40,458 nucleotides of DNA from Flavobacteriales bacterium (GTDB lineage: Bacteria; Bacteroidota; Bacteroidia; Flavobacteriales; BACL11): the NCBI GenBank assembly GCA_002716345.1, contig PBAP01000004.1, positions 1 through 40,458 on the forward strand, in the 5' to 3' direction. Shown here in pieces: positions 9,297-33,776 of this stretch. The notes beneath the pieces are model-generated. The model made no database searches. It was not told the DNA's origin and was given only the letters and a program-made list of their open reading frames with translations. The translations under genes were made by a program, and so were the position numbers. Position 1 is the first letter of the stretch; each line of letters begins with the position of its first letter.

Positions 9297-10451
9297 TCAA
9301 ACGTACTTTTCATACAAGATGTGTGTTTCTTTTGCTGTTTTATTCCAATTTAAACTTTTGGCTCTCTTTAACCCACTACTTTTTTGTGATTTAATTTCTG
9401 AATTATCTCGGCACACTGAAATAATTGATTCAGACAATTGGTAGATGTCCATAGGATCAATAATTGTCGCGCATCGGCCTGCAATCTCAGGTAAAGATGA
9501 TTTATTAGATGTTATGACTGGACATTGACAGGCCATGGCCTCAAGAATTGTTAAACCAAAGCCTTCAAATAAAGATGGGTAAACAAATACACTTGCCTTA
9601 GTGTACAGATATCTCAACAATTCATCACTCACGAAACCAATCATATGAACTCGATTTTGCAGTTTAAGGCTATTGATATATTGCTTGCTTTTTTTAAAAT
9701 CCCAGCCATCTCCACCGACTGCTATTAAGTGATGATCAAAACTGTTTTTAATTAAGTTGAAAGCTTTAATTACAGATGAAAAGTTTTTTCTAGGGCTCAA
9801 TTTACCAACACACAGTATAAATTTTTTTTCTTTAAGAAATTTTATTTTATCATTATCTGCAATTTGATTTAATTTGATTTTGTTGAAAAAAAACTTACCA
9901 ACTCCTTCATAAACAACACTAATTCTTTTTTCAATAGATTGATGATAATTTTTCTTGCAAAATAGTTCAACTTCCGTTGCAGTGTATTTTGAAACACAAA
10001 TTAGATGATCAGCTTTTTTAACTATTTGCCTAAAACTTTCTTTCATTAGCCAATTATCTTTTTTAGTAAAAAATTGAGGATGAGTTAAAGGACCAATGTC
10101 ATGTATAGTTACTATATAAGGTTTATTTGTAGCAATAGGATAGGTTAGTGAATGCGCGTGCAATAGATTAATATTGCAATCTATCATGTTTTCAATTTTC
10201 GGAAAGTTAAGGTATTTCCAGAGCAAGGGCGTTATTTTTCTACCAAATGGCAATATTCTTAATCCAGAGTTATCTTTTAACAATCTTAGTTCTCTAGATT
10301 TTTTTTCACTACCTGTTGCTATAGGAATGAAGTTATAATTACTTTTAAGTTCTTTTAGATGACTGTACAAATATTTTGAATACCTAGCAATTCCATGGCC
10401 TTGATTTGTCGTAAACTGGTTCGAAAAAAACCCTATGTTTTTATTTTTCAT
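9297..10451 (-). CDS. GT4 family glycosyltransferase
   Basis: This is a 384-residue GT-B glycosyltransferase of the mannosyltransferase-like GT4 group. It has GHGIARYSKYLYSHL near the N-terminus, VTIHDIGPLTHP and LICVSKYTATEV in the middle, and VGKLSPRKNFSSVIKAF in the donor-binding half. The E-x7-E motif is Glu296/Glu304 (EGFGLTILEAM). It probably adds one sugar of the repeat unit. The ATG overlaps the stop codon of the preceding GT2 gene by one base (TAATG), indicating translational coupling. An 88-base gap follows before the next gene, and I see no feature in it. Confidence 0.88.
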   Translation of the reverse strand: MKNKNIGFFSNQFTTNQGHGIARYSKYLYSHLKELKSNYNFIPIATGSEKKSRELRLLKDNSGLRILPFGRKITPLLWKYLNFPKIENMIDCNINLLHAHSLTYPIATNKPYIVTIHDIGPLTHPQFFTKKDNWLMKESFRQIVKKADHLICVSKYTATEVELFCKKNYHQSIEKRISVVYEGVGKFFFNKIKLNQIADNDKIKFLKEKKFILCVGKLSPRKNFSSVIKAFNLIKNSFDHHLIAVGGDGWDFKKSKQYINSLKLQNRVHMIGFVSDELLRYLYTKASVFVYPSLFEGFGLTILEAMACQCPVITSNKSSLPEIAGRCATIIDPMDIYQLSESIISVCRDNSEIKSQKSSGLKRAKSLNWNKTAKETHILYEKYV

Positions 10452-11425
10452 TAATGGCTCTTTATTTCAAAGTTTGTTTTTGCAAAAACTTTATTCCATG
10501 AAACATTTATTTTATTTCTCAATTTACTATTTAAAAACAGTCCAAAAAATGCTGCATACGAATCAAAGTCAAATGGATAAATAAAAATACTTTTAATTAG
10601 AAAATAAAATGATTTTTTTTTTGAACTTAAGTAATGATGATTAACTCTTCCAATTCTCTTGTAAAAACACCCCTTAGCTTTTTTTTGATCCATAAAGCTC
10701 AACTTACCAATTTCTCTTTTGTATTTTTTTCTTATGTATTTGTAAGCGTTTATTTCATTTACAGAATTTGATGAAGTTCTCACTCCACGATGTATCCTAA
10801 GTAATAATAAATTTTCTTTTACAGCATGAATTTCATATTTTTTGCTAATTCTAATCCACATATCCCAATCTTGTCTTGCTTTTAAATTTGTGTCAAATTT
10901 TCCAACATGTTTGAAAACTTCCTTTTTAATTAAATAACTTGAAGTTGGTGAGGTTATATCATTAATCAATAATTTTGAATGAATTAAACCAACAAAGTAA
11001 GTTCTTTTTTTGTCAGAAACAACTAATCCATTTTCATAATTAATTTCTTTTAGACCACAATAAACAGCTCCTACATTTTTGCGATTTTTAATTAAATTAT
11101 ATTGTTTATGCAATTTAGTTTTTTCCCACAGATCATCACTATCTAAAAATGCTATGTATTGACCGTTACTTTTTTCAATTCCATAGTTTCTTGCTACATT
11201 TCCTCCCGAATTTATTTGTTTTAAATATATTAATTTGGTTTCTAAGTTTTTTTCTTTCCATGAGTTTATTTTCTCTGATGTTTTGTCTGTTGACCCGTCA
11301 TCAACTACTATTATTTCTATTGGCCTGTATGTTTGATTTATGCATGTATTTAAAGCATCAATAATCATTTTTTGCCTGTTAAACGTCGGTATTACTATAG
11401 AAATCAAATCTGAGGGATTAACCAT
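10451..11425 (-). CDS. GT2 family glycosyltransferase
   Basis: This is a 324-residue inverting GT-A glycosyltransferase. The canonical start is ISIVIPTFNRQKMI at residues 8-21, with [20 protein letters not shown] and the metal-binding FLDSDDLW after it. LKARQDWDMWIRIS is the usual acceptor-side segment. The C-terminal about 90 residues are basic and aromatic and may contact the membrane. It overlaps the preceding GT2 gene by 8 bases and the next gene by one base. It probably acts on the lipid-linked oligosaccharide at the inner face of the membrane. Confidence 0.9.
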   Translation of the reverse strand: MVNPSDLISIVIPTFNRQKMIIDALNTCINQTYRPIEIIVVDDGSTDKTSEKINSWKEKNLETKLIYLKQINSGGNVARNYGIEKSNGQYIAFLDSDDLWEKTKLHKQYNLIKNRKNVGAVYCGLKEINYENGLVVSDKKRTYFVGLIHSKLLINDITSPTSSYLIKKEVFKHVGKFDTNLKARQDWDMWIRISKKYEIHAVKENLLLLRIHRGVRTSSNSVNEINAYKYIRKKYKREIGKLSFMDQKKAKGCFYKRIGRVNHHYLSSKKKSFYFLIKSIFIYPFDFDSYAAFFGLFLNSKLRNKINVSWNKVFAKTNFEIKSH

Positions 11426-12227
11426 TTTTTTTAAAAATATTTTCTAGACTCGATCTTGAAATTGAGTTTTGTTTGTCCCAAACTAATGAGTTGGCACGAA
11501 AAACAGCAAAAGAAGAGTGAATTGCAGAAATAAGTCCAGGTGTTCCATCTAAATAGCCTTTTTTGTATAAAAATTTTATTAAAAATTCTTTAATTGTTCT
11601 AATAAAAATTTTGATGAAGGTAATTTTTTCATCCGACGTTTCTAACTTTTTTACCTCTTCGTTTTGGTAAATTAAACTCTTTTTTAATCTTTCTGAATAT
11701 GAATCGTCATTAAAGTGATGCATTTTTTCTTTTAGTTGTCCGACATTCTTAGAATTTAAAATTATTCTTTCATGATACATTCCTTCAAATTTTAAAACTT
11801 CTCTTTTTGCTAAATGTACCAAGTTCCAGTCTGCCCAACCACCCCCTCTCATGGGTCTGTGAAGAAAATAATTTAAGCGTCTAAATTTAAACGCATCATA
11901 TTTGTTTAGATTTATAGCAATTTTAATTTCATCAAATAGTTCTTTTGAAACTCTTTCGTCAATGTCCATATGTAATATCCAATCGGACTTAGATTTATTT
12001 ATTCCTTTATTTCTCTGGTCTGCGTAATATTCGCCTTTCTTTCTTTTTGAATTTAGAAAAGTTACTTTTTCACCGAATGATTCACATATTTCTCTTGTCT
12101 TGTCAGTTGATCCATCATCTACGATAACAATCTCATCAACTTTATCATGTAAATTATTCAAAAACCCTTCAATATCAACTTCTTCATTAAATGAAATGGC
12201 AACAACTCCGAGCATTTGGTGCCTCAT
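11418..12227 (-). CDS. GT2 family glycosyltransferase (WaaE/KdtX-like)
   Basis: This is a 269-residue GT-A enzyme. It has [32 protein letters not shown] and the acidic metal site [10 protein letters not shown], in the manner of the WaaE/KdtX beta-glucosyltransferase group. It is followed by the conserved [17 protein letters not shown] segment and a histidine-rich region (MHHFNDDSY). A hydrophobic stretch near residues 200-240 may associate with the membrane. The specificity of the group varies, so the sugar transferred is open. It overlaps UDP-xylose synthase by four bases (ATGA). Confidence 0.88.
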
Positions 12228-13162
12228 ACTAAATTCTTTTCAAAATATTCAATTGTTTTTAACAGTCCAACATCTAATTCAATTTTCGGTTCCCAGCCGT
12301 TTAAAACTTTATTCGCAAGAGAAATATCAGGTTTTCTTTGTTTTGGGTCATCATCAGGCATTTTTGAAAAAATTATTTTTGATTTTGAGCCAGTTAAATC
12401 AAGTACCTTATTAGCTAAATCTATTATAGTAAATTCACAAGGGTTACCTAAATTGACAGGCCCAATGAACTCATCATTTGTACTCATTGTTTTTTTAATT
12501 CCTGAAATTAAATCATCAATATATTGAAATGACCTAGTTTGTTTACCATCTCCGTAAATAGTAATATTATCTCCTTTTAAAGCTTGGACAATAAAGTTAG
12601 AAACAACTCTTCCATCATTTGGGTGCATATTTGGGCCGTACGTGTTAAAAATACGTACAATCTTTATTTTAACATTGTTTTGATTGTGATAGTCCATGAA
12701 AAGTGTTTCTGCACATCTTTTTCCTTCGTCGTAACATGATCTTAACCCGATTGGATTAACATTTCCCCAATAATTTTCTTTTTGCGGGTGCTGTTGAGGA
12801 TCACCATAAATTTCACTTGTGCTTGCCTGCAAAACTTTTGCATTTGTCCTTTTTGATAATCCTAATACATTTATTGCTCCCATTACTGAAGTTTTAATTG
12901 TTTTAATTGGATTATATTGATAGTGAATTGGAGAGGCGGGACATGCTAAGTTATAAATTTCATCAACTTCTGCAAAATAAGGTTGAGTAATATCATGCCT
13001 CACTAGCTCAAAAAATGAATTATTTATTATTTCAACAATATTTTTTTTTGATCCCGTAAAAAAATTATCAAGGCAAATTACTTCATTACCCTCTTTTAAG
13101 AGATTTTTACAGAGGTGTGAGCCTACAAATCCTGCGCCTCCTGTTACAAGTATTTTCTTCAT
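12224..13162 (-). CDS. uxs: UDP-glucuronate decarboxylase (UDP-xylose synthase)
   Basis: This 312-residue SDR enzyme converts UDP-glucuronate to UDP-xylose. It has a [12 protein letters not shown]-binding motif at residues 8-16, [11 protein letters not shown], the family-defining [23 protein letters not shown] and a catalytic Y-x3-K (CYDEGKR). [20 protein letters not shown] and [14 protein letters not shown] follow. All are hallmarks of soluble bacterial UXS. Its substrate is made by the UDP-glucose dehydrogenase at 26277-27668. Its presence implies that xylose, or a sugar derived from it, enters the polymer. Confidence 0.95.
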
Positions 13163-13169
13163 AATAATA

Positions 13170-14075
13170 TTATTTTATTTTCATTGGTCTAATTATTCTA
13201 TCTTTTATTTGTTTAATGAGTCTTTTTATTTTTTGTTGATTGTAAAAATCAAGTTTAAAATTTTTAGATTTTGACTTTATTAAATCATTATTGCTATAAC
13301 CAAAAAAATTTGCAAGTTGAACTACAGACTCATCCATTTTTAGATAGTAGCTTTTATCATTTTTCCATTTTAACTTTGAATCTCCATGAATATGTTTTAT
13401 CATGTTTTCATCATATTTAACTTCTATAAATTTACAAATCAATGAAATATTTTTTTTTGGATGATCAACTAAATCTTCATATTTAAGTTCTAGATAATTA
13501 TTGTGATTAATTAAATTTTTGAAAGCGATAAGATTCTTGTAAGATTTTAACCATGCAAACTGTCTTTTCTCAGGATCTGTTCCAAAAAGTTTTTGAGCAG
13601 AATGCTGCACAGATTGAGGATTTCTTACTAACCCAATTATTTTAACATCATATTCTGTTTTTTTCATCCACTTTAATATTAATGATAGACTTGCCCAATT
13701 GGCTAAATACTGAGGGGATTTTTCAAAAAAAATATTTTTGCAAAACTTGTTGCACAGCTCCTCCCAACCGTTAAATATCAAATCTTCATCACAAACCTTT
13801 GTATTAAATTTAGAAATATTTTTTTTAAGTAAGTCTATCATATAAATTTTTGCATTTTTTCTAGAACCATAACCACGATATGAGATGTTATTAGAAAATA
13901 GCACATTATTAGATTTCAAAATTACAGCTCCTTTTAGCCAATGGTGTGTCTCTAAATATGTGTGTGGGGAGTAAGCAACAGTTTGAATATTACCATGTTG
14001 GCACAAGCTATTTTGCAACATAGTTGAGCCTGACCTTTTATCTGATAATAAAATTAAAACAGTCTTTTTTTTCAT
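13170..14075 (-). CDS. Sulfotransferase (PAPS-dependent)
   Basis: This 301-residue protein has a 5'-phosphosulfate-binding loop at the N-terminus ([12 protein letters not shown], Ser15-Gly-Ser-Thr18). A candidate 3'-phosphate site is [18 protein letters not shown], and [17 protein letters not shown] is the usual later segment of the family. It would transfer sulfate from PAPS to a hydroxyl or amine on the growing polysaccharide. No signal peptide is seen, so it acts in the cytoplasm. It starts 4 bases inside the end of the polymerase gene and lies 7 bases before uxs. The acceptor is unknown. Confidence 0.85.
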
Positions 14076-15358
14076 TGTCTAATTTCTTCTTTAATGATTA
14101 GGGTAGATAAAACTAAGCATAAAAAAAATATAGCTGATCCGTTTGGAGTAGTTATTGCCCCATGAGATGTAAAACACCAAATAAACACAGGAACAATACA
14201 TATGAAAAGATTACTCCTTTTTTTAACGCAAAACATCAGATTTTTCCAAATTAAGTACAGAATGAACATATAAATAATAGAGACTAAAAATCCATAAATA
14301 TAAAATGATCTACCAAACAAAGAGTGATCAGGGTTATTAACATTTAAATCAAAATATTTTATACTTTTTTTAGATCTTAACGAGTTTATAGTTGCACCTG
14401 AAAACAAATAAAATGGTTTTTTTTGTAAATCGTTAAAGGGCTGAGTATAAGAAAAGACCCTTTCATTAATCCCACGAATTTGATTTTCATTACTTGCTTC
14501 AATTTCAAATGAAGCCTTATTGATCCTGTCAAAATTCAAGTATTTAGTGTTCTCAACCAACTTTCCCCAATTTAAAAATATAGATATGATAATCAAAGAG
14601 AATAAGTATTTGTAATTAGAATTAATATTTGAAATTAATACTTTAAATAAAAATATTAAGATTAATGATATAAACACAGTTCTACTGTACGTAGCAGTTG
14701 CTGCCGCTAATGTAAATAGAATGATTAAAATATTTGATGTTTTTATTTTTTCAAAATAAATAACAATACCTAACCCAAATAAAATTATAGTACCAGAAAT
14801 ATTAGATACACCAATTAAACTCAAACCTCTTATAGCTTCATCAACACCCGATTTTTTGTCAAATATCTTTTCTGCGGAGGGATATAAAAAATTATAGGAA
14901 ACAAGGCTTTCTATTAAATCTCTTGTTACAGGAACACTACTACCTATTAGTACAATAGAAGTGAACAAACAGGAGTATTTAATAATACTTACGTAAGTTC
15001 TTTTTTTAGTTATCTCTTGATAAATTTTAGGGAAAAATGTAAATATTCCTATAATAGGAATAGAATGCCTAATTAAATTATAAGAAAATATTCTAATATC
15101 ATTAGTTAAAACTAAATATACAAGTTGGCTGATAATAAACATAAATAAAAGAAAAAGAGCTATTTTTTTTAACTTAATATCGCTTTTAAAATTAATGTTT
15201 CGATAAATTAAAAATATTGATATTATATCAACAAAATATAATGGGACAGCACCTATATATATATTTATTTTTGGTAGAGCAAATGTTAAAACTAAATATA
15301 AGCTTATCAGCCAACTCAATTTACTGTTTTTTTTGAAACCAATTTCCTTATTCATCAT
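14072..15358 (-). CDS. Wzy-like O-antigen/exopolysaccharide polymerase
   Basis: This 428-residue integral membrane protein has many hydrophobic segments, probably 10-12 helices. They begin with LISLYLVLTFALPKI, and a long polar loop lies in the middle (about residues 285-345). TYSRTVFISLILIFLF resembles the conserved segment of the Wzy/WaaL ligase-polymerase family, followed by a loop and another helical pair. The family joins lipid-linked repeat units at the periplasmic face. It is the only polymerase candidate in the cluster. Overall conservation in the family is low, so it rests on topology plus context. The start has two adjacent ATG codons, and it overlaps the upstream GT4 gene by 11 bases. 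Confidence 0.8.
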   Translation of the reverse strand: MMNKEIGFKKNSKLSWLISLYLVLTFALPKINIYIGAVPLYFVDIISIFLIYRNINFKSDIKLKKIALFLLFMFIISQLVYLVLTNDIRIFSYNLIRHSIPIIGIFTFFPKIYQEITKKRTYVSIIKYSCLFTSIVLIGSSVPVTRDLIESLVSYNFLYPSAEKIFDKKSGVDEAIRGLSLIGVSNISGTIILFGLGIVIYFEKIKTSNILIILFTLAAATATYSRTVFISLILIFLFKVLISNINSNYKYLFSLIIISIFLNWGKLVENTKYLNFDRINKASFEIEASNENQIRGINERVFSYTQPFNDLQKKPFYLFSGATINSLRSKKSIKYFDLNVNNPDHSLFGRSFYIYGFLVSIIYMFILYLIWKNLMFCVKKRSNLFICIVPVFIWCFTSHGAITTPNGSAIFFLCLVLSTLIIKEEIRQ

Positions 15359-16403
15359 ATATCTCGATATATTTTTCTAGTGTCATTTTTATATCAAATT
15401 TCTTTGCCCTTGTAAATGCACTTTTACCAATTTGATTACATAAGTTTATGTCATTTAATAATGACTTTATTAAAAAAATAATTTTCTCTTTTTCATTTGA
15501 GTTGACTAAAAAACCTTGCTTATTATTTATAGCAATTAATTCATTAAGCCCCTCAACATCACTTATAATGCAAGGAAGTGATGCGTTCATAGCTTCCAAA
15601 GCAGACAGCCCAAAACCTTCCCACTCAGACATAATAATAAAAATATTAGCCTCTTTAAGTAATTTAGGAATATCATCAACAAATCCTAAAAACTTAACTT
15701 TATTAATAACTTTGAGATCTTTAGCTAAATCAATTAGACGATCTTTTTCTTGACCCTCTCCAGCTACATACAGTTGAAAGTCTTCATCAATCTCAGATAT
15801 TGTTTTTATTGTTTTTTCATAGTTTTTAAGTTGATGTAATCTTCCCACTGATACTATTATTCTGTTATTATTTCTTTTAATAGGTTTTTTAAAAAGTAAT
15901 GGAATTCCATTGTAAATTATTTCAACTTTATTTTTTAAGTTATGATGTTCATTAACCAATGAATTTAATACACCTTCACTAATTGCAATTATTTTGTGAA
16001 AAGATTTATAAATAAAATAATTTAAAATCTTGCCCCACAATTTCCCTTTTCTTCTGTTGTTTGTGCTATGTTCTGTAAATATATATTTACATTCTTTGTG
16101 AGAAAAAATTTTTTTTAATAATGAAACATAAAGAGAACATGGAAATAAATGAGCATGAATTACATCTTTATTTTTGACTTCGTTTTTGAAATAGTAAAAA
16201 AGCTTAAAAAAACATCTTAAGTCATACGGAGACTTAAAGCTAAATGAATGAGAATTTTCAACATCTTTAAAATTAGATTTTGTAATGGATAATAACTTAG
16301 CATTTCTATTTTTATTAACTTCTAAGTGTAGTAATCTTACAATTTTTTGAGCTCCACCGTTCTCTAAATTAAAGTCGTTAATTATGTTATGAATTGTTTT
16401 CAT
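15348..16403 (-). CDS. GT4 family glycosyltransferase
   Basis: This is a 351-residue GT-B enzyme. It has NLENGGAQKIVRLLH near the N-terminus, KDVIHAHLFPCSLYV, IYNGIPLLF, VSVGRLHQLKNYEKTI and the E-x7-E site at Glu262/Glu270 (EGFGLSALEAM). It resembles the broad WbpX/EpsD-like GT4 group. It probably extends the repeat unit with one sugar. It overlaps both neighbours, by four bases (ATGA) upstream and 11 downstream, so it belongs to the same tightly coupled operon. Confidence 0.88.
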   Translation of the reverse strand: MKTIHNIINDFNLENGGAQKIVRLLHLEVNKNRNAKLLSITKSNFKDVENSHSFSFKSPYDLRCFFKLFYYFKNEVKNKDVIHAHLFPCSLYVSLLKKIFSHKECKYIFTEHSTNNRRKGKLWGKILNYFIYKSFHKIIAISEGVLNSLVNEHHNLKNKVEIIYNGIPLLFKKPIKRNNNRIIVSVGRLHQLKNYEKTIKTISEIDEDFQLYVAGEGQEKDRLIDLAKDLKVINKVKFLGFVDDIPKLLKEANIFIIMSEWEGFGLSALEAMNASLPCIISDVEGLNELIAINNKQGFLVNSNEKEKIIFLIKSLLNDINLCNQIGKSAFTRAKKFDIKMTLEKYIEIYDE

Positions 16404-17620
16404 TTAATATTTAAAAGTCTTTTTAGTTTCACTTTAAAATTTCTTGAAATAATACCATCACCTGTTTGTCTAAAGTTTTCATCTGGTTTAAATTCTTTCC
16501 AGTCCCTAACCTCTGTATCAGAACTTTCTTTAGCTAGTACAGAAACTATGTTTTTGTAATATGATTTTGCTGTAATTGAAATATCAAATCTTTTTATTGC
16601 ATCTTTAATAGATTCTTCACAAATTCTATTAATTAGTTTTCTATCTGAACTCAATTTTTTTATTAAAATAGATATGCCTTTGTAGTCTCCCCTTTTAAAA
16701 AGGTATCCGTTTTTTTTATCATCAATTATATAATCAGTGATTCCTTCTATTTTCCATGCTATGCACAGACAGCCAGCCATTTTAGCCTCTAGAAGGGAAT
16801 TAGGACAGCCTTCAAAATGAGAGGGGAATAAATATATATCAACGTCACTAAAGAATTTCGGAATATCTTTTTTTGCAACTTGCCCTATTAGACTAATTTT
16901 TCTATTCAGTATGTTCTTTTCTAGAACTTTTTTTAATTTTTTCTCTTCTTTTCCTTTTCCTGCAATAGTTAACTTATAATCAATTGCTAGCTTATCAAGT
17001 TCTTTAACTATTTCTGGTATGTGCATTATTCCTTTTTGATTGTGTTCTAATCTTCCTAAAAAGGCTAATTTCAAATGTTTTTTGGCACCACGCACTTTTT
17101 TAGATGCTTGCTTGTATAAATTTTTTGGAACACCGTTTGGAATCAAACTAAGATCTGATTTTTTAACGCCATAAATTTCATTTAAGTCATTATATAGCTT
17201 TGGAGTGAGAGCAATGACTGATTGAACTCTTCTACCTCCCGACAAGGTTATTCTGTATCCGTGGTCAAAGGCATTGGCACATCTTGAAATTACTCTAATA
17301 TTTTTAGGCAAGTGAGGTATTGAGCTAAGAATAGCCTCTGAATTTACTCCAATCACAACATTAATTTTTTTAAAAATACACCAGTTTACAAATTCTTCAC
17401 TTTGTTTTTTTACGTTGTAAGTGTTTTTTGCTAATAAAACACAGTTCTCATCAGCATAGCTTTTCATCCACAGCTCTGACTGTTCTTTTCCAACTGAGAC
17501 ACAATACATAACAATATTGTATTTTAGAATTTCTTTTCTTAACGTATAATAAAATGAGTATGTTCCCCCGTCTTTTGGTACCGATCCAAATGCTATTTTA
17601 ATTAAACTATTTTTTTTCAC
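16400..17620 (-). CDS. GT4 family glycosyltransferase
   Basis: This is a 406-residue GT-B glycosyltransferase. It has FGSVPKDGGTYSFYYTLR at the N-terminus, LIPNGVPKNLYKQA and AFLGRLEHNQKGIMHI. The donor-site E-x7-E is Glu270/Glu278 (FEGCPNSLLEAKMAG). The C-terminal about 50 residues are a charged extension. The start is GTG; the in-frame codons upstream to a TAA contain no ATG. A 22-base gap separates it from the upstream sulfotransferase. Confidence 0.87.
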   Translation of the reverse strand: MKKNSLIKIAFGSVPKDGGTYSFYYTLRKEILKYNIVMYCVSVGKEQSELWMKSYADENCVLLAKNTYNVKKQSEEFVNWCIFKKINVVIGVNSEAILSSIPHLPKNIRVISRCANAFDHGYRITLSGGRRVQSVIALTPKLYNDLNEIYGVKKSDLSLIPNGVPKNLYKQASKKVRGAKKHLKLAFLGRLEHNQKGIMHIPEIVKELDKLAIDYKLTIAGKGKEEKKLKKVLEKNILNRKISLIGQVAKKDIPKFFSDVDIYLFPSHFEGCPNSLLEAKMAGCLCIAWKIEGITDYIIDDKKNGYLFKRGDYKGISILIKKLSSDRKLINRICEESIKDAIKRFDISITAKSYYKNIVSVLAKESSDTEVRDWKEFKPDENFRQTGDGIISRNFKVKLKRLLNIK

Positions 17621-17642: not shown

Positions 17643-18566
17643 TCATTTATAGTTTTTGAATACTAAGTCAACTAATTTCGTTTGAAAATACTCTTTTTTT
17701 ATATGTTTAGTATTTTCGGTTTCTAATATAATTTTCTCGTTTTTTTTATTAAAAATCCATCTGTTGCCGACATAAATATGCTGCTTTTTGATTTCAAGAT
17801 TTCTATCAAATTCATTAGAACTATTAGGGCTACATTTTAGAAAATTTAAAACTCTTGAATATTCAATTTGCGGATTATTTTTGAAATTTTCAAAATCAAC
17901 TGTCAATTTATTTCCTTCTTTTACTTTGTTAAACACTTTACGTCTATGTTTTTCTCTGAAATACAATAAAATCAGTTCTCTGTAAAATTTAAAACCAATT
18001 ATTTTTCTTGTTTTCTTTTCTCTTTTAATATTCGAATCAAATAGGGATTTTAAATTCCGTTTTAGGTATATGCAATATATATCTATTTCAGAGCTTTCTA
18101 GTAAAATATCTAAGCGCTCTGGCGGTTTTGATGAGTCTACAATATATTTTGACCTGTTATGATATTTATCTATTTCTTTGAAGAAGTTAATATTCTTCTC
18201 TATATAATTGTTTATGGACTCTTCACCATAAACAACTTGAGGACTAAATCCTAAAAGAATTAGTAACTTTTTAAATGACAAACCTTTTTTGTCGATTAAC
18301 GATCTTTTTTTATTTGAGCTTAAACTAAAATTCAATAAACCTTTTGAAATACTTTGATTTAATTTTTCTTTAATTTCATGCCAATAAGTACAATTGAAAA
18401 CTCTATCGCCACATGTGCAAATAAGATTTTCATTGTAATCATGTTCTAAATTAATCACTTCACCAAGGTTTGTTATATTTGAATGTTTACCTAAAAATAA
18501 ACTAAAGATTGTTGATCCAGAAAAAGCATTCGCTGATAAAAAAATGACTTTTGGCTTTTTATTCAA
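17643..18566 (-). CDS. Sulfotransferase, Cys-motif type
   Basis: This 307-residue protein has the PAPS 5'-phosphosulfate loop NAFSGSTIFSLFLGKH (Ser16-Thr19). It is followed by a cysteine pattern, Cys50, Cys52 and Cys59 (ICTCGDRVFNCTYW), seen in one branch of bacterial sulfotransferases. YIVDSSKPPERLDILL and YLKRNLKSLFDS fit the 3'-phosphate region. The cysteines may bind metal or form a disulfide. The start is TTG at 18566; no ATG lies between it and the in-frame TAA at 18585-18587, and the P-loop comes only about 15 residues later. A 42-base AT-rich gap separates it from the next sulfotransferase gene. Confidence 0.78.
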   Translation of the reverse strand: MNKKPKVIFLSANAFSGSTIFSLFLGKHSNITNLGEVINLEHDYNENLICTCGDRVFNCTYWHEIKEKLNQSISKGLLNFSLSSNKKRSLIDKKGLSFKKLLILLGFSPQVVYGEESINNYIEKNINFFKEIDKYHNRSKYIVDSSKPPERLDILLESSEIDIYCIYLKRNLKSLFDSNIKREKKTRKIIGFKFYRELILLYFREKHRRKVFNKVKEGNKLTVDFENFKNNPQIEYSRVLNFLKCSPNSSNEFDRNLEIKKQHIYVGNRWIFNKKNEKIILETENTKHIKKEYFQTKLVDLVFKNYK

Positions 18567-18608: not shown

Positions 18609-19475
18609 TTATCTCTCACGTATAATTACACTTTTTTTCTTTGTACGTGGAGTCCATAACTCAAGTGATTTATTTACAAGAACTTCCAAACTCTCAATAT
18701 CTTTTTTATAGATTGAAAAAAGTTTTATTTGTTCACTATCAGTTAATTTTTTTATTTTATTTTTTTCATTGCCAAATATATTTTTTAGACCTAACCTGAT
18801 AAAAAAATTAGGTAAAAAATCCAAATCTTGTTTTCTTAAGTACTGGCCAATTTTATGAGCAAAACGGAAAGCCTTTCTATACTTTGGGATTACACTTTCG
18901 TTTTTTCTACTAGGTAATTTGAAAAGAGATTTATCGACACCAAAGAATGAACTTAATTCGCTTAATAATTTTTCGGGATCAGCTGTAACTTCCTCATAAA
19001 TTAAAATTAGAAATTGATCCCTTTCAAAGTATTCTAAATACTTATTTAAATATTTATAATACATGCCATTTTCAATTGCTAATTTAGGTAGTTTCGTGCA
19101 AAAAGTTTCAAAATCAATATTTTCACCAGTTACTCTTAAATGCCACTTAAAATGAGAGTATGCTCTTTTTATAGGGCTTCTTAGAATCAACACAAACTTT
19201 TCAACAGACTTAAGGTTTTTAATTCTCTTCGGAGCATTTTTAGCTGTTAAATATCCTGGTGTAAATTCTCCTTGATATTTAGGAGCTTTTTTTGAATTTA
19301 GGAAAAATTTTTGATACCAATTTTCACCTTTGTTGTAAAATCTTGTAAAAAATTGAATTTCTTTTCTTTTGCTTGGCATGTAGAAATCAGGATGTGACTT
19401 GATCACTGTCCATAGCCATGTACTTCCTCCTCTAACAGAACCAATCCCTAAAAAATTAGGTTTATCATTTATCAT
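18609..19475 (-). CDS. Sulfotransferase, heparan N-sulfotransferase-like
   Basis: This 288-residue protein has the motif FLGIGSVRGGSTWLW at residues 8-22, then HPDFYMPSKRKEIQFFTRF and GENWYQKFF. This is the pattern of the NDST/heparan-sulfate sulfotransferase-like family (Sulfotransfer_1). The 3'-phosphate site is LILRSPIKRAYSHFKWHLR. Members transfer sulfate from PAPS to glycan amines or hydroxyls. No export signal is present, so sulfation is likely cytoplasmic on a lipid-linked sugar. It overlaps the downstream side of the GT4 gene at 19472 by four bases. Confidence 0.9.
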   Translation of the reverse strand: MINDKPNFLGIGSVRGGSTWLWTVIKSHPDFYMPSKRKEIQFFTRFYNKGENWYQKFFLNSKKAPKYQGEFTPGYLTAKNAPKRIKNLKSVEKFVLILRSPIKRAYSHFKWHLRVTGENIDFETFCTKLPKLAIENGMYYKYLNKYLEYFERDQFLILIYEEVTADPEKLLSELSSFFGVDKSLFKLPSRKNESVIPKYRKAFRFAHKIGQYLRKQDLDFLPNFFIRLGLKNIFGNEKNKIKKLTDSEQIKLFSIYKKDIESLEVLVNKSLELWTPRTKKKSVIIRER

Positions 19476-20590
19476 CCCTCCTCAAAGATAATTTTATTTA
19501 ATCTTTTAGCAATTTTTCTTGATTCATAATTGCTTTTTGCATATCGATAACCATTTTCACCCATAGTTTTCAATTTATTTTTATTTAAAAGAAGATAAAT
19601 GATCTTTTTTGCCATTTCTTTATAATCATTTTCCTCAACAAGATAGCCTGTTGTTTCATTAGCTACAGTTTCTTTAAAACCATTATGATCAGTTGTCACA
19701 ACCGGCAATTTTGAAGCCATAGCTTCTAAAAGAGAAACACCTTGGCTTTCAGTATCTCCATTCTTTGCTGTAATTGAATGTTGAACAAAAATACTTGCAA
19801 CACTTAATCTTTCTTTTACAAACTTATGAGTTTTAACCCCGTGTAAAGTAATTTTTTCTTCAAGATAAAGATTTTTTATTAACTCTTTGCAGTTGTCATA
19901 TAGCTTACCTCCTCCTATTAATTCTAATTTGGCTTCTGGTATTTTCTTTTGAACTATGTCAAATGCCTTTATGCTTAGATGAGGTGCCTTTTTTTCTACA
20001 AATCTACCAACACCAATAATTAAATTAGAATTCTTTTTTTGGTCATTTTTAAAACTTTCTAATTCGATCCCGCAAGGAACTACTTTTATTTTTTCGAAAG
20101 AAATACCTACACTAGCCACAATTTTTTTAAAGTGCATAGAACCACAGACAACAGTATTGACATTAGAATTTAAGAATCTATATGCTCTTCTAATTAAATA
20201 TCTTTTCCCCATAACTGTAGCATCATGGCCATGAAAATTTACAACTAGTTTAAGATTTAATTTTTTACAAATTTTAGATATTAAACATCCAGTCGGCCCA
20301 AACTCTGCAAAGACCGAACTAACTTTGTGCTCACAAAAAAAATTAATAATATTTAACTCATTTTTTTTGTCTATAACTCCACTATATCCCCAAAATATTA
20401 GATTATATAACTTTTCAAAACTAAATTTCTTGAAATTTCTGTTAATTTTTAATGAGGGTATATTTTTGACTGATAATCCATCACCTTCAAAGTAAACAAC
20501 AACTGTTTTTTTTGGGCTAATTAATCTTATGTGTTGTCTTACAAAAGTTTCAGCAGGTGTATCAGGGTTAGGAGTTATTATAGCTAGCAA
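19472..20590 (-). CDS. GT4 family glycosyltransferase (WcaL/AmsK-like)
   Basis: This is a 372-residue GT-B enzyme resembling the colanic-acid WcaL and amylovoran AmsK group. It has NPDTPAETFVRQHI at the N-terminus, VVNFHGHDATVMGKRYLI, GVGRFVEKKAPHLSI, and the group-typical HSITAKNGDTESQGVSLLEA with the E-x7-E pair Glu281/Glu289. It is predicted to add a galactose-like or related sugar, but donor specificity is not secure. The start is TTG (LAIITPN) with no ATG before an in-frame TAA at 20612-20614. It overlaps the sulfotransferase gene upstream by 7 bases. Confidence 0.87.
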   Translation of the reverse strand: MLAIITPNPDTPAETFVRQHIRLISPKKTVVVYFEGDGLSVKNIPSLKINRNFKKFSFEKLYNLIFWGYSGVIDKKNELNIINFFCEHKVSSVFAEFGPTGCLISKICKKLNLKLVVNFHGHDATVMGKRYLIRRAYRFLNSNVNTVVCGSMHFKKIVASVGISFEKIKVVPCGIELESFKNDQKKNSNLIIGVGRFVEKKAPHLSIKAFDIVQKKIPEAKLELIGGGKLYDNCKELIKNLYLEEKITLHGVKTHKFVKERLSVASIFVQHSITAKNGDTESQGVSLLEAMASKLPVVTTDHNGFKETVANETTGYLVEENDYKEMAKKIIYLLLNKNKLKTMGENGYRYAKSNYESRKIAKRLNKIIFEEG

Positions 20591-21414: not shown

Positions 21415-23172
21415 TTATTCAAGTAATTTGCTGAAATAACCATTCTTATTGCATTCAAGTTCAACATAAGATCCTGATTCTAATAGTTTACCATTATCAA
21501 TATAATATATTATATCAGAGTTTTTTAATGTAGAGACTCTGTGTGCAATAATTATTATTGACATCTTATTTTTAAGCTTTTCAATTCTTTTCTGAATATA
21601 ACTTTCAGATTTTGTATCAAGAGCTGATGTAGCTTCGTCAAGAATCAATAAATCAGGTTTTTTCAGTAATTCTCGTGCTAGAAAAAGTCTCTGCTTTTGC
21701 CCGCCAGAGATCATTGCTCCATTTTCGCCAATTCTAGTGTCAAAACCGTCTTCAAGTTTAGAGATAAATTCATAAGCATTAGCATCTTTTGCAACTTTGG
21801 TAATTTCTTCTAAGCTATAGTTATCGTTCCATAGTGTGATATTATTTTTTACTGTATCGTCAAAAACTTTAATGTCCTGAGAAACAAAGCCAATTTTCTT
21901 CCTCCAGCTTTGTTTATCAATTTCTGATAAACAAACGCCATTTATTTTTATACTATTTTTATTACTTTCTAAAACCCCGGTTATTAAATCTATTATTGTA
22001 GTTTTCCCACTTCCAGATGGACCAACAAATGCTGTTATTTCGTTTTTATTTAAAATCAAGTTAAAGTCTTTAAATAAATAATTTTTGCTTTTGTCAAATT
22101 TAAATTTAAGGTTGCTGATTTCAATAAAATGTTTATTTGAATTTAAATCCTCATATTTTTTGATTCCGTTATTTGAAATATTTTTATTGAGCGTATTTAA
22201 CTCATTATCTACAGATTTAATGAACCCAATTGTTTCCATAATTGTCACCCACATTCTTTGTGTTCTTATTAAGTTTGTTAAGCCTCTGTAGTATAAAAGC
22301 AAAACAACAATAATGCTACTGATTGATTTTTCAAAATAAACTACCTCAATTAGTATAAGTAATATTACTAAATTTATTGAAATCAACTCTTTAAGTGAGG
22401 CTGTAAGTGCTAAGGCTGATTGAGATTTATAGTGTAAATTTTGTATTGTTCTAAGTGTCCTATCATACATCTTTGATAGCTTATCTTTGCTCCCGCTTGA
22501 AATTAAATATTTTAAAGCGTTTAATGACTGGATAGTAATTTGTGATAGAACTGTAGTTTCATTGGCATTTTGTAAAGATACTTTTCTAACATAACGATTT
22601 ATTAATATAAAAAAAGTTAGAGATAGAAATCCTATTAACAATGCTATCATGGATGTTTGAAATGATATAAATGATGAAAAAATAATATATGTAAGTGCCA
22701 TTATAAATGCACATAAATACTCTACAAATCTTTTGAATGATGTTAGTGTTTGCTGAGAGTGCATATTCATAAGTTCAATATAATAGCCTGAGTTTTTTTT
22801 CAAGAAATATTCATAACGAACAGAAAAAATTTGTTTAAATAATATGTTTTTTATTTTGTAGAATAGATTCTTAAATAAAAAAGCTTGGAACATTCCTTGT
22901 CCAAATTTAAAAACAGCTTTTAAAAAAAAAATCAAAAACATAATTAAAAGTACCGCATGTAATGAGCTATCAATGTTAAAATACTCAAACATCTTTGTTA
23001 GAATATTTGAATCATCAGTTTCATTTTTTTCAACTGAAGATAAAAGTGGAATAATCATTGCCAAACCTATTCCGTCAGTAAATGCGACAATAATGGTTAG
23101 TAGAAGTAAAAGAAAAATTCGTTTACCAACGTAGTAGTAGTAAAATTTAAATAAATATGAAAAAGATCTCAA
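21415..23172 (-). CDS. ABC transporter, fused permease and ATPase (PglK/MsbA-like flippase)
   Basis: This 585-residue exporter half-transporter has about six membrane helices in the first about 320 residues. The ATPase domain has Walker A FVGPSGSGKTTI with Lys390, signature ISGGQKQRLFLAREL, Walker B LLILDEATSALD and H-loop IIIAHRVS. It would act as a homodimer. In a cluster that has Wzy and a lipid-linked initiating enzyme but no Wzx, it most plausibly flips the undecaprenyl-linked repeat unit, as PglK does. The alternative is export of another lipid or product. The start is TTG, three bases after the epimerase stop codon. Confidence 0.88.
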   Translation of the reverse strand: MRSFSYLFKFYYYYVGKRIFLLLLLTIIVAFTDGIGLAMIIPLLSSVEKNETDDSNILTKMFEYFNIDSSLHAVLLIMFLIFFLKAVFKFGQGMFQAFLFKNLFYKIKNILFKQIFSVRYEYFLKKNSGYYIELMNMHSQQTLTSFKRFVEYLCAFIMALTYIIFSSFISFQTSMIALLIGFLSLTFFILINRYVRKVSLQNANETTVLSQITIQSLNALKYLISSGSKDKLSKMYDRTLRTIQNLHYKSQSALALTASLKELISINLVILLILIEVVYFEKSISSIIVVLLLYYRGLTNLIRTQRMWVTIMETIGFIKSVDNELNTLNKNISNNGIKKYEDLNSNKHFIEISNLKFKFDKSKNYLFKDFNLILNKNEITAFVGPSGSGKTTIIDLITGVLESNKNSIKINGVCLSEIDKQSWRKKIGFVSQDIKVFDDTVKNNITLWNDNYSLEEITKVAKDANAYEFISKLEDGFDTRIGENGAMISGGQKQRLFLARELLKKPDLLILDEATSALDTKSESYIQKRIEKLKNKMSIIIIAHRVSTLKNSDIIYYIDNGKLLESGSYVELECNKNGYFSKLLE

Positions 23173-23175
23173 AAG

Positions 23176-24207
23176 TTAAATATTTATGTTGTAGTATAGT
23201 TTGTACCAGTCAATAAACTTCTTGATTCCTATTTCTGCATCGGTTTTTGCTTTAAAGCAATAATCCTTATACATTCTTGAAGTATCTGCATACGTAGTCA
23301 AAACATCTCCTTTTTGCATAGGCAACATTTTTAGCTTCGCTTTTAAACCTATGTTTTTTTCTATTATTTTGATAAAGTCTAAAAGTTTTACAGGTTTATT
23401 ATTACCAATATTATATAGCTTATGCATTACCTTACTCTCTTTATTTTCATTAATGCACTTAACCACTCCTTCACAAATATCATCTATATATGTAAAGTCT
23501 CTATCTAATTTTCCATAATTAAAGACATTTATGGGGTCTCCATTTATTATTGCTTTGGTAAATAAATAATATGCCATATCTGGCCTACCCATTGGTCCAT
23601 ATACTGTAAAGAAGCGCAACCCAATAGTATTTAATGAGTATAGGTGTGAATATGAATATGCCATTAATTCATTAGATTTTTTTGATGCGGCATATATGCT
23701 AACAGGAAAATCTACAAAATCTGACTCTTTAAAAGGGACTTTCGTGTTATTGCCATATACACTTGAACTACTTGCGTAAACTAATTTTTTAATATTGTAA
23801 TTTCTACAACATTCTAAAATATTCATAAATCCGCATATGTTAGTGTTTATGTATTTATGTGGATTTTTTAATGAATACCTTACTCCAGCTTGAGCTGCTA
23901 AATTACAAACTTTCGTAATTTTATTTTCTTCAAATATTTTTTCTAAGTTTTTTTTATTTTCGATATCAGTTTTGATAAATTTTAATTTTTCAAGGTATAT
24001 CTTACTTTGATAAACTTCATTTTCAATAAAAAAATTGTCAGCTTCAAAACCAAGCTCGCTCAATCTGTGTGTTTTCAAATTAACATCGTAATAATCGTTC
24101 AAATTATCAAGACAAATTATATTTACATCATATTTTGCTAATTCTCTACAAATATAAAAACCAATAAATCCGGCAGCACCAGTAACTAAAATAGTTTCTT
24201 TAATCAT
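23176..24207 (-). CDS. UDP-glucuronate 4-epimerase
   Basis: This 343-residue SDR enzyme interconverts UDP-glucuronate and UDP-galacturonate. It has VTGAAGFIGFYICREL at the N-terminus, LDNLNDYYDVNLKTHRL (the hallmark of the CapI/GAE group), AAQAGVRYSL, SSSSVYGNNTKVPF and catalytic Y-x3-K (SIYAASKKSNELM). GLRFFTVYGPMGRPDMA and LDRDFTYIDDICEG follow. Its substrate comes from the UDP-glucose dehydrogenase in this operon. It overlaps gmd by 8 bases. Confidence 0.93.
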   Translation of the reverse strand: MIKETILVTGAAGFIGFYICRELAKYDVNIICLDNLNDYYDVNLKTHRLSELGFEADNFFIENEVYQSKIYLEKLKFIKTDIENKKNLEKIFEENKITKVCNLAAQAGVRYSLKNPHKYINTNICGFMNILECCRNYNIKKLVYASSSSVYGNNTKVPFKESDFVDFPVSIYAASKKSNELMAYSYSHLYSLNTIGLRFFTVYGPMGRPDMAYYLFTKAIINGDPINVFNYGKLDRDFTYIDDICEGVVKCINENKESKVMHKLYNIGNNKPVKLLDFIKIIEKNIGLKAKLKMLPMQKGDVLTTYADTSRMYKDYCFKAKTDAEIGIKKFIDWYKLYYNINI

Positions 24208-25267
24208 TTTTTAATTTATTATAATCAGATTTTATCATTTCTTCTACTAAATCTTTAAATTGGTATTTTGGTGTCCAATTTAACTTTTTTCTTGCTTTGC
24301 TCGAATCCCCAAGTAATTCGTTAACTTCAGAAGGACGATAATACCTTTTTTTGACTTCGACTACCACTTGATTTTTATTAATTTGATATTTTGGATTTTT
24401 ACAGTTAACAACAATTGCCTTCTCATTTAAACCTGTTCCTAAAAACTTAATATCAATTTTAAAATATGAAAATGATAGCGTTAATAAATCTTTAATTGAA
24501 TAACTTTTCCCAGTTGCAATTACCCAGTCTTCTGGTTTTTTATATTGTAAAATTTTCCACATAGCTTGTACATAGTCTTTTGCGTGCCCCCAATCTCTTC
24601 TTGCATTTAGATTTCCTAAATAAATTTTTTCCTGTTTCCCAAGTACAATATTAACTATAGCCATTGTTATTTTTCTAGTTACAAAAGTTTCACCTCTCAT
24701 AGGACTTTCATGATTAAAAAGTATTCCATTACATGCAAAAATATTGTATGACTCTCTATAGTTAACTATAGTCCAATATGAATAAAGTTTTGCTACAGCG
24801 TACGGTGATCTAGGTTTAAATGGCGTATCCTCATTTTGTGGAATTTGGTCTGCATTTCCGTATAGCTCAGAAGTAGAGGCTTGATATATTTTTATCTTTT
24901 TTTCAAGTCTAAGAATTCGGACTGCTTCTAAAATTCTTAATGTGCCTAACGCATCTACATTTGCAACATATTCTGGTATAGAAAAAGAGACATTAACATG
25001 ACTCATCGCGGCTAAATTATATATTTCATCAGGGCATATCTTTTTTATTAGTTCTATTAATGATAAACTGTCAGTCATATCACCGTAATGTAGAGTTAAT
25101 CTATTTTTTTTGTTAAATGGGTCGCTATAAATATTGTCAATTCTTTGTGTATTAAAAGAGGAAGCTCTTCTTTTTAAGCCGTGAACTATATATTTTTTTT
25201 TAAGTAGAAATTCTGCTAAATATGCTCCGTCTTGTCCAGTTATGCCAGTAATTAATGCGGTTTTCAT
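24200..25267 (-). CDS. gmd: GDP-mannose 4,6-dehydratase
   Basis: This 355-residue SDR enzyme converts GDP-mannose to GDP-4-keto-6-deoxymannose, the first step to GDP-fucose. It has ALITGITGQDGAYLAEFLL, the VHGLKRRASSFNTQRID signature, STSELYGNADQIPQ, catalytic Y-x3-K (SPYAVAKLYSYW), and NHESPMRGETFVTRKIT with LGNLNARRDWGHAKDYV. All are diagnostic. The GDP-L-fucose synthase gene lies just upstream, so the two steps are encoded together, separated by a 49-base AT-rich gap. GDP-mannose-forming genes are not in the window. Confidence 0.97.
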   Translation of the reverse strand: MKTALITGITGQDGAYLAEFLLKKKYIVHGLKRRASSFNTQRIDNIYSDPFNKKNRLTLHYGDMTDSLSLIELIKKICPDEIYNLAAMSHVNVSFSIPEYVANVDALGTLRILEAVRILRLEKKIKIYQASTSELYGNADQIPQNEDTPFKPRSPYAVAKLYSYWTIVNYRESYNIFACNGILFNHESPMRGETFVTRKITMAIVNIVLGKQEKIYLGNLNARRDWGHAKDYVQAMWKILQYKKPEDWVIATGKSYSIKDLLTLSFSYFKIDIKFLGTGLNEKAIVVNCKNPKYQINKNQVVVEVKKRYYRPSEVNELLGDSSKARKKLNWTPKYQFKDLVEEMIKSDYNKLKND

Positions 25268-33190: not shown

Positions 33191-33776
33191 ATTTAAGCTT
33201 TTCTAGTATGCATTTTTTGATTTTTTGCATTGATTCATCAATTGTTTCTTTGTTTGTATTAATCTCTAAAGTTGGATTTTCTGGCGCCTCATATGGTGAA
33301 GATATACCTGTCATATTTTTTATTTCACCGAGTCTAGCTTTTTTGTATAATCCTTTAGTATCTCTTTTTTCACATTCCTCTAAACTTGCATTTATGTAGA
33401 CTTCAATAAAATTATCTGACCCAACTATATTTTTTACCATATCTCTGTCTTTTTTGAAAGGCGATACAAAAGCTGCTATAGTTAATACACCAGCTTCTAT
33501 TAATAGCTTAGCAACTTCAGAAATCCTTCTTATGTTCTCGCTTCTGTCGGAGTTTGAAAAGTTTAAATCTCTATTCAAACCTTGCCTAATATTATCACCA
33601 TCTAAAACAAAAGTAGATAATTTTAATGAATACAGCTCTTGTTCAAGTAAATTCGCAAGAGTTGATTTACCAGAGCCTGAAAGCCCTGTAAACCAAACCA
33701 ATGAAGAGTTATGCTTGTGTAGGTCTTCTCTATCCTTTCTTGAAATTTTATAATTATGCTTGAATGTATTTTTCAT
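33171..33776 (-). CDS. cysC: Adenylylsulfate (APS) kinase
   Basis: This 201-residue kinase phosphorylates APS to PAPS, the sulfate donor of the sulfotransferases. P-loop: WFTGLSGSGKSTLANLLE with Lys37-Ser-Thr. It also has LDGDNIRQGLNRDLNFSNSD, VSPFKKDRDMVKNI (the mobile loop with the conserved Ser) and the ARLGEIKNMTGISSPYEAPE lid. It is a normal stand-alone length. It lies 10 bases after the DUF2061 gene. No PAPS reductase gene is present nearby. Confidence 0.96.
   Translation of the reverse strand: MKNTFKHNYKISRKDREDLHKHNSSLVWFTGLSGSGKSTLANLLEQELYSLKLSTFVLDGDNIRQGLNRDLNFSNSDRSENIRRISEVAKLLIEAGVLTIAAFVSPFKKDRDMVKNIVGSDNFIEVYINASLEECEKRDTKGLYKKARLGEIKNMTGISSPYEAPENPTLEINTNKETIDESMQKIKKCILEKLKYGKLHN

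What the first reader, a model, noticed from the sequence alone, without database searches (positions are those of the whole stretch)
18609..19475. Heparan-type sulfotransferase in a bacterial cluster
The N-terminal stretch FLGIGSVRGGSTWLW and the KEIQFFTRF segment match the NDST-like group best known from animal heparan sulfate. Together with UDP-glucuronate, UDP-xylose and an animal-type UGDH in the same operon, this gives a toolkit resembling glycosaminoglycan synthesis.
Basis: partly seen in the sequence, partly recalled or inferred. Interest (0 to 1): 0.5.

Follow-up and report, generated by a model that had tools for sequence, protein, structure and literature searches.

The report
Sulfate-adding enzyme in capsule cluster
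This gene very probably makes an enzyme that adds sulfate to a surface sugar coat of a small bacterium; it has the same fold as the animal heparan sulfate enzymes, but bacteria of many kinds have relatives of it and nothing shows that the coat is heparan-like.

Summary
An intact 288-aa ORF on the MINUS strand (18609-19475) is a PAPS-type sulfotransferase of the heparan-sulfate (3-OST/NDST) fold class. The quoted motifs are not NDST markers: their key residues are shared by nearly all bacterial relatives aligned, and a bacterial structure is the best match. Trees cannot say whether it is especially close to the animal enzymes.

Around it lies a capsule/O-antigen type locus with CysN-CysD-CysC, animal-type UGDH, UXS1-type UDP-xylose synthase, GDP-fucose enzymes, seven glycosyltransferases, Wza/Wzc, a putative Wzy, an ABC transporter and up to five sulfotransferases. 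The site is conserved in two congeners, but its middle, with this gene, differs.

CysC and CysD are single-copy in the genome, both in this window; no PAPS-reductase-type or sulfite-reductase match was found. Sulfate activation therefore looks devoted to sulfation.

Best reading: sulfation, probably O-sulfation, of a complex acidic surface polysaccharide. A heparan-like, N-sulfated polymer is possible but unsupported. New member of a known kind; the wider surprise is a family-wide sulfation habit in small-genome Flavobacteriales.

The parts
18609..19475 (-). P0001, heparan-type (Sulfotransfer_1) PAPS sulfotransferase, 288 aa; Glu39, Arg99 and Ser107 kept, PSB loop GSVRGGSTW with Arg15 where most rows have Lys
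13170..14075 (-). sulfotransferase (Sulfotransfer_3), of another subfamily than P0001
   Evidence: 1.8e-15; profile match to the P0001 family prob 62.3 over 114 columns
17643..18566 (-). putative sulfotransferase-like protein; no Pfam hit, profile match to the P0001 family prob 8.8 over 35 columns; a 26% homologue stands among sulfotransferases in L080
20584..21405 (-). sulfotransferase (Sulfotransfer_3/1), of another subfamily than P0001
   Evidence: 9e-08, 1e-06; profile match prob 25.9 over 30 columns
36675..37538 (-). P0002, likely fifth sulfotransferase, no Pfam hit; profile comparison with the P0001 family prob 95.8 over 262 columns; absent at this site in the two congeners compared
31022..32284 (-). 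CysN, sulfate adenylyltransferase large subunit
   Evidence: TIGR02034, 564.7 bits
32285..33190 (-). CysD, sulfate adenylyltransferase small subunit; only PF01507 match in the genome
   Evidence: (TIGR02039, 416.9 bits)
33171..33776 (-). CysC, APS kinase; only PF01583 match in the genome
26277..27746 (-). UDP-glucose 6-dehydrogenase, animal type
12224..13162 (-). UDP-glucuronate decarboxylase (UXS1 type), UDP-xylose
23176..24207 (-). nucleotide-sugar epimerase/dehydratase, best 5u4q (356 bits), then 6zl6 (150 bits; a UDP-GlcA 4-epimerase, recalled)
24200..25267 (-). GDP-mannose 4,6-dehydratase
   Evidence: TIGR01472, 547.9 bits
25317..26276 (-). GDP-L-fucose synthase-like (394.8 bits, below the equivalog cut-off of 500)
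27691..28884 (-). second nucleotide-sugar dehydrogenase (TviB-like, below the equivalog cut-off)
29966..31015 (-). RmlB, dTDP-glucose 4,6-dehydratase
   Evidence: TIGR01181, 445.1 bits
34251..35264 (-). GalE, UDP-glucose 4-epimerase
   Evidence: TIGR01179, 365.1 bits
28881..29969 (-). WecA-like initiating sugar-phosphate transferase
21415..23172 (-). ABC transporter, likely lipid-linked sugar flippase (role inferred)
14072..15358 (-). putative Wzy polymerase (hydrophobic, by position; no Pfam hit)
4884..7193 (-). Wzc-like chain-length/tyrosine kinase
7195..7971 (-). Wza-like export protein
8081..9208 (-). glycosyltransferase GT4
9297..10451 (-). glycosyltransferase GT4
10451..11425 (-). glycosyltransferase GT2
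11418..12227 (-). glycosyltransferase GT2
15348..16403 (-). glycosyltransferase GT4
16400..17620 (-). glycosyltransferase GT4
19472..20590 (-). glycosyltransferase GT4, overlaps the P0001 ORF by 4 bases

Best explanation
P0001 is a cytoplasmic PAPS-dependent carbohydrate sulfotransferase that sulfates, probably on a hydroxyl, a sugar of the surface polysaccharide (capsule/O-antigen type) made by this locus. CysDN makes APS from sulfate and ATP, CysC makes PAPS, and P0001 with up to four other sulfotransferases moves the sulfuryl group to the lipid-linked repeat unit or the growing chain. The unit starts on a WecA-like transferase and is flipped, polymerised and exported by the ABC transporter, putative Wzy, Wzc and Wza. 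Shown by sequence and fold: enzyme class, PAPS supply, co-directional locus, sugar-nucleotide enzymes. Inferred: activity, acceptor, order of steps, O- rather than N-sulfation.
For: Domain and fold. The putative catalytic Glu (79 of 83 rows), 3'-PB Arg (82 of 83) and Ser (83 of 83) are kept in P0001. The whole donor pathway is in the same gene array. CysC and CysD are single-copy, and no PAPS-reductase-type or sulfite-reductase match was found in the genome, so PAPS has no other evident use. The same site in G001 and G004 keeps the flanks and CysCDN but changes the middle, as capsule loci do. Relatives lie among polysaccharide genes on Aureispira and Phaeobacter plasmids and in G399 and G049. 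Published sulfated-capsule clusters carry cysNDC plus sulfotransferases, called a hallmark in the Vibrio KMM 8419 paper (PMC11641403, passages).
Against: No biochemistry; the acceptor is unknown. Arg15 replaces the PSB lysine that 74 of 83 rows have (7 rows have Arg), so altered or weaker activity cannot be ruled out. The genome is a 94% complete draft, so an absent gene could be missing sequence; the family-wide pattern argues against that. Of 36 family relatives, 8 have sulfotransferase matches but no CysC match, and 8 others have CysC without any PF01507 match; how the latter make APS was not examined.
Confidence: 0.83

Rival explanations
1. One reading: the polymer is glycosaminoglycan-like (alternating uronate and hexosamine) and P0001 is an NDST-like or 3-OST-like enzyme acting on glucosamine.
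For: Heparan-type fold, UGDH and UXS of animal type, TviB-like and WecA-like genes that could bring amino sugars. Pontiella shows that bacteria can make a mostly N-sulfated GAG-like exopolymer (PMC7356697, passages). A second, family-conserved sulfation locus carries a protein whose low-confidence model resembles GH79 (heparanase, beta-glucuronidase) and GH51 folds.
Against: Motif residues are family-wide. A bacterial enzyme is the best match. GDP-fucose, UDP-xylose and RmlB genes and seven GTs point to a complex heteropolysaccharide. No HSNSD N-deacetylase in 40 genomes including the own one, but the control was silent, so this is weak.
Confidence: 0.1
2. P0001 sulfates fucose or another neutral sugar, giving a fucoidan-like acidic bacterial polysaccharide (a narrower form of the best explanation).
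For: GMD and FCL-like genes are in the locus. The nearest tree partner of P0001 (L045 in G399; support 99/89) lies about 2.7 kb from an FCL-like gene (42%).
Against: Neighbourhood of one relative only; fucose genes are common in capsule loci (recalled).
Confidence: 0.3
3. Sulfate activation here serves sulfur assimilation, and the sulfotransferases are marginal.
For: CysDNC are usual assimilation genes in many bacteria (recalled).
Against: The only PF01507 match in the genome is CysD, and there is no NIR_SIR match. In the 36 family relatives every PF01507 match over 100 bits (19 genomes) has CysD length, and only one genome (G034) has a NIR_SIR match, in an 825-aa frame; G034 also has a weaker PF01507 match (55.8 bits, 388-aa frame) that I did not identify. 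In 23 of 28 relatives with CysC it lies within about 6 kb of a sulfotransferase match (read).
Confidence: 0.04

Closest known systems
Vibrio sp. KMM 8419 and Cobetia marina KMM 1449 sulfated capsule clusters (PMC11641403, PMC11766843; abstract passages and passages read)
   Same: cysN, cysD, cysC plus sulfotransferases inside a surface-polysaccharide locus; content differs between strains (Vibrio)
   Different: Those export by Kps-type ABC transporters, and in Vibrio cysC, cysN and cysD are second copies; here Wza/Wzc with a putative Wzy and ABC flippase, and CysC and CysD are the only copies found
Synechan xss cluster of Synechocystis (PMC8205485; passages read)
   Same: Wzx/Wzy-type sulfated exopolysaccharide with two sulfotransferases and eight glycosyltransferases
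   Different: Sugars Rha, Man, Gal, Glc; the word PAPS does not occur in its text; a cyanobacterium
Pontiella GAG-like exopolymers (PMC7356697; passages read)
   Same: Putative GAG sulfotransferase gene in a cluster with GT2/GT4 genes in a marine bacterium; polymer studied chemically
   Different: 75% and 80% N-sulfation measured there; nothing measured here; different phylum
Animal heparan sulfate 3-O-sulfotransferases and NDST
   Same: Fold, PAPS loops, catalytic Glu
   Different: 20-24% identity over the aligned fold, no N-deacetylase domain, no evidence for a heparan acceptor
3rnl, Alicyclobacillus acidocaldarius sulfotransferase
   Same: Best sequence and structure match
   Different: 25% identity over the fold; its substrate was not looked up

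Membership tests
PAPS sulfotransferase, Sulfotransfer_1 (PF00685) | Domain match above the curated cut-off | tested here: met
   57.3 bits against 22
PAPS sulfotransferase, Sulfotransfer_1 (PF00685) | 5'-PSB and 3'-PB motifs | tested here: met
   Present, with Arg instead of the usual Lys at position 15
PAPS sulfotransferase, Sulfotransfer_1 (PF00685) | Sulfuryl transfer from PAPS | not testable with these tools
   Needs an enzyme assay
Heparan-sulfate-type (3-OST/NDST) fold class | Structure nearer to HS enzymes than to other sulfotransferases | tested here: met
   Z 21.8-24.8 for HS enzymes, 14.9 or less for the other classes listed
Heparan-sulfate-type (3-OST/NDST) fold class | Shares an exclusive ancestor with the animal enzymes | tested here: inconclusive
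   AU p 0.611 for P0001 with the animals; 0.486 and 0.489 for two bacterial control rows
NDST | Bifunctional: N-deacetylase plus N-sulfotransferase in one protein | tested here: not met
   288 aa with sulfotransferase matches only
NDST | HSNSD-type N-deacetylase elsewhere in the genome | tested here: inconclusive
   No match in 40 genomes, own included, but the control rang nowhere
Glycosaminoglycan biosynthesis | UDP-uronate supply | tested here: met
   UGDH, UXS
Glycosaminoglycan biosynthesis | Alternating hexosamine-uronate backbone | not testable with these tools
   GT specificities cannot be read from GT2/GT4 matches
Bacterial sulfated capsule/exopolysaccharide cluster | PAPS genes, sulfotransferases, GTs and export genes together | tested here: met
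Bacterial sulfated capsule/exopolysaccharide cluster | Sulfate in the polymer | not testable with these tools
   No polymer at hand; a draft genome only

The most novel reading that the evidence does not exclude
A whole family of small-genome, apparently marine Flavobacteriales has lost sulfate assimilation yet keeps sulfate activation only to sulfate its surface. It uses two loci: a strain-variable capsule locus (this window) and a family-conserved one with three to four heparan-type sulfotransferases, a CysQ-like phosphatase and a heparanase/beta-glucuronidase-like enzyme. This would be an independent, uronate-containing, GAG-like sulfated glycan system in ocean bacteria.
Probability: 0.3. 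Interest if true: 0.7.

Novelty: new member of a known kind. Interest (0 to 1): 0.4.

Why it matters
Sulfated polysaccharides of the sea are mostly credited to algae, animals and cyanobacteria, with Bacteroidota as degraders; one metagenome study found no sulfotransferase gene in any of its Bacteroidetes genomes (PMC9723792, passages). A small-genome Flavobacteriales that spends its only visible sulfate-activation pathway on surface sulfation would be another source of such glycans, and a supply of heparan-type sulfotransferases of unknown specificity. Six searches of the open-licence paper library listed no paper on sulfated-polysaccharide synthesis in such bacteria. I judged by titles and abstract openings of the listed rows, apart from the papers whose passages I read; one search listed 12 of 94 papers, 20 of 36 and 16 of 17.

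Tried and rejected
Phylogeny to decide animal kinship: the 83-row tree (quick) and the 48-row tree (careful) keep the animal enzymes as one clade apart from P0001, but the AU test does not reject P0001 with the animals (the held tree scored 4.18 lnL better), and two bacterial rows taken as controls are not rejected either (four controls were planned, two finished in time). I call this uninformative. Before the trees, 8 rows with more than 15 X (all from the own genome's second locus) and 11 duplicate or contained rows were dropped. For the smaller tree 35 further rows (long branches, near copies, the window's two other sulfotransferases) were left out, 48 of 83 kept.

PF12062 N-deacetylase search: nothing, but the control was silent, so no conclusion. 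Scan of genome contigs with P0001: 58 pattern hits, no relative; the 54 loci came from a query made of second-locus sulfotransferases of relatives, without P0001. Phage collection: no match. The Sinorhizobium plasmid hit had no annotated neighbours. The other window sulfotransferases do not match the P0001 family profile well, so they are other subfamilies.

The CysC-to-sulfotransferase distances (23 of 28) were read by eye; the list was capped, so 23 is a lower bound. CysD or CysH type is judged from match and frame length, not from a CysH-specific model. Roles of Glu39, Arg99, Ser107 and position 15 are recalled from the animal enzymes; their conservation is. That family members are marine is inferred from isolate codes in record titles (recalled codes), not stated.

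Full report
What is there. The finding lies on the minus strand: an intact ATG-to-stop ORF of 288 aa at 18609-19475. It is a Sulfotransfer_1 protein (57.3 bits, cut-off 22). Sequence search of the PDB puts a bacterial Alicyclobacillus sulfotransferase first (3rnl, 1.6e-18), then HS3ST3A1 (1.5e-15) and NDST1 (1.4e-12). A predicted model (mean pLDDT 81.4) gives the same picture: Z 25.7 for 3rnl, 24.8 for HS3ST3, 23.5 for NDST1, then a drop to 14.9 for other sulfotransferase classes. 3rnl and HS3ST3 are tied (difference under 1). So 'heparan-type' is right as a statement about fold class.

What the motifs mean. In an alignment of 83 sequences (three from the window, 76 from bacterial loci, four PDB segments of which one is bacterial), the position of the KEIQFF segment that aligns with the animal catalytic glutamate is Glu in 79 of 83 rows; the 3'-phosphate-binding Arg is kept in 82 (the exception is NDST1, with Ile) and the Ser in 83. 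The quoted motifs therefore mark the whole bacterial-plus-animal group, not NDST. P0001 has Arg15 where 74 of 83 rows have Lys (7 have Arg, 2 gaps). Roles of these residues are recalled from the animal enzymes.

Kinship. In a 48-row tree P0001 pairs with a sequence from another Bacteroidota family (L045, support 99/89) and the three animal enzymes form their own clade (98/92). But a tree with P0001 held to the animals is not rejected (p-AU 0.611; it scored slightly better than the free tree), and the same is true of two bacterial control rows (0.486, 0.489). The depth is unresolved. The wider group is taxonomically broad: a scan with second-locus sulfotransferases of relatives gave 54 loci, with titles naming Flavobacteriales, Alpha- and Gammaproteobacteria, Actinomycetes, a cyanobacterium, Verrucomicrobia and an archaeon; 202 of 72,556 plasmid records match P0001 at 1e-5, 76 from Sinorhizobium and 58 from Phaeobacter.

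The locus. From 4.9 kb to past 36 kb the main ORFs run on the minus strand with short gaps or overlaps. They encode Wzc- and Wza-like proteins, seven glycosyltransferases, a WecA-like initiator, an ABC transporter, a putative Wzy, RmlB, GalE, GMD, an FCL-like protein, an animal-type UGDH (617 bits against 232 for the next group), a UXS1-type decarboxylase (402 bits), an epimerase-like protein, a TviB-like dehydrogenase, and CysN-CysD-CysC. Three proteins have Pfam sulfotransferase matches (13170, 18609, 20584), a fourth (36675) matches the P0001 family profile over 262 columns, and a fifth (17643) is only putative. UGDH of this type (E at most 1e-100) is present in 7 of 99 sampled Bacteroidota genomes including the own one, the other six at 65-71% identity, so it is uncommon but not unique.

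Site comparison. Two congeners have the same locus between MnmG/GalE and PorZ. CysC, CysD, CysN, RmlB, UGDH, GMD, FCL, WecA, Wza and Wzc are found there at 42-92% identity, while the middle is different and has no P0001 homologue by blastp at 1e-4. That is the layout of a variable capsule or O-antigen locus. In G001 two ORFs of the middle begin with PSB-like motifs, by eye only.

Where the PAPS goes. The own genome has one APS kinase and one PF01507 protein (CysD), both in this window, and no NIR_SIR match. Of the 36 other genomes of the family, all 36 have P0001-type matches (7 of 23 other members of the order do), 28 have CysC and 19 have a PF01507 match over 100 bits, each of CysD length. 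Frames of about 210-260 aa, the CysH type, carry strong PF01507 matches only outside the family. The exceptions inside it are short or weak matches, among them one of 55.8 bits in a 388-aa frame (G034), not identified. G034 is also the only one of the 36 with a NIR_SIR match, in an 825-aa frame. Many of these genomes are incomplete (55-99%). Eight have no CysC match, and eight have CysC but no PF01507 match; how those make APS was not examined. By my reading, CysC lies within about 6 kb of a sulfotransferase match on the same contig in 23 of the 28; in G001 and G004 it lies in the capsule locus instead, and in G023, G030 and G035 on another contig. PAPS synthesis without a visible reductive branch points to sulfation as its use. 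A wider Bacteroidota sample has P0001-type matches in only 38 of 395 genomes including the own one.

A second locus. At G000:C4 about 127-140 kb (L025, L043) lies a cluster with four P0001-like sulfotransferase ORFs, glycosyltransferases, a flippase-like and an inositol-phosphatase-family (CysQ-like) protein, and a 460-aa protein with an apparent signal peptide and no Pfam match (Pfam was run on the G001 copy, where a Wzy_C protein was also found). That last protein is in 30 of 36 family relatives and only weakly in 2 of 23 others. Its low-confidence model (pLDDT 56.4) is nearest to GH51 by Foldseek and to GH79 beta-glucuronidase/heparanase by VIA-align (Z 18.9, against 18.5 for GH51: tied). 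This adds a little weight to a uronate-containing polymer, but belongs to the other locus.

Who it is. The own genome is 1.5 Mb, 94% complete; window GC 28%. PorZ in the window fits Bacteroidota.

Known and new. Sulfated capsule clusters with cysN, cysD, cysC and sulfotransferases are published for Vibrio and Cobetia, Wzx/Wzy-type sulfated exopolysaccharide for Synechocystis, and N-sulfated GAG-like exopolymer for Pontiella; I read passages of these, not the whole papers. A review notes that the Pfam seeds are rich in GAG enzymes (PMC11625862, passages), which helps explain why bacterial members look 'heparan-type'. A Shark Bay mat study reports that all its Bacteroidetes genomes lacked the sulfotransferase it searched for (PF13469). 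The gene is therefore a new member of a known kind. What would surprise a specialist is the family-wide, apparently dedicated sulfation in small-genome Flavobacteriales.

Verdict. Carbohydrate sulfotransferase of a sulfated surface polysaccharide: 0.83. Heparan-like or GAG-type with amino-sugar sulfation: about 0.1.

Noticed in passing
L025 7246-19999 and L043 2-1197 (G000:C4 about 127-140 kb): Second sulfation locus, conserved in the family: four P0001-like sulfotransferase ORFs, SIS-domain and HAD proteins, flippase-like and CysQ-like proteins.
   Followed up: partly
L025 11656-13038; L030 7743-9125: 460-aa protein with apparent signal peptide in 30 of 36 family relatives, no Pfam match; low-confidence model nearest to GH51 and GH79 (heparanase/beta-glucuronidase) folds.
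   Followed up: partly
window 31022-33776: In G000, G001 and G004 (one genus) CysCDN sit in the capsule locus, while in 23 of 28 family relatives with CysC it lies near the second-locus sulfotransferases: the module seems to have moved.
   Followed up: partly
window 33787-34191: DUF2061 membrane protein between CysC and GalE; also in the same locus of G001 (between GalE and WecA) but not seen at that place in G004. Function unknown, a possible link to sulfate use.
   Followed up: no
G000:C5 6179-19205 and C1 2696-3508: Five sulfatase-domain matches in the same genome, four of them within 13 kb: the organism may break down sulfated glycans as well as make one.
   Followed up: no
window 36675-37538: Likely sulfotransferase inserted between two genes that are adjacent in the congeners G001 and G004.
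   Followed up: partly
L080 447-18609 (G049, another family of the order): A CysQ-like ORF (by eye), CysC-CysD-CysN, several sulfotransferases and a 53% homologue of the window epimerase in one stretch: a similar arrangement outside the family.
   Followed up: partly
window 35257-36534: Protein with weak fibronectin type III matches, 82% identical in two congeners, next to GalE at the locus edge in all three; role unknown.
   Followed up: no
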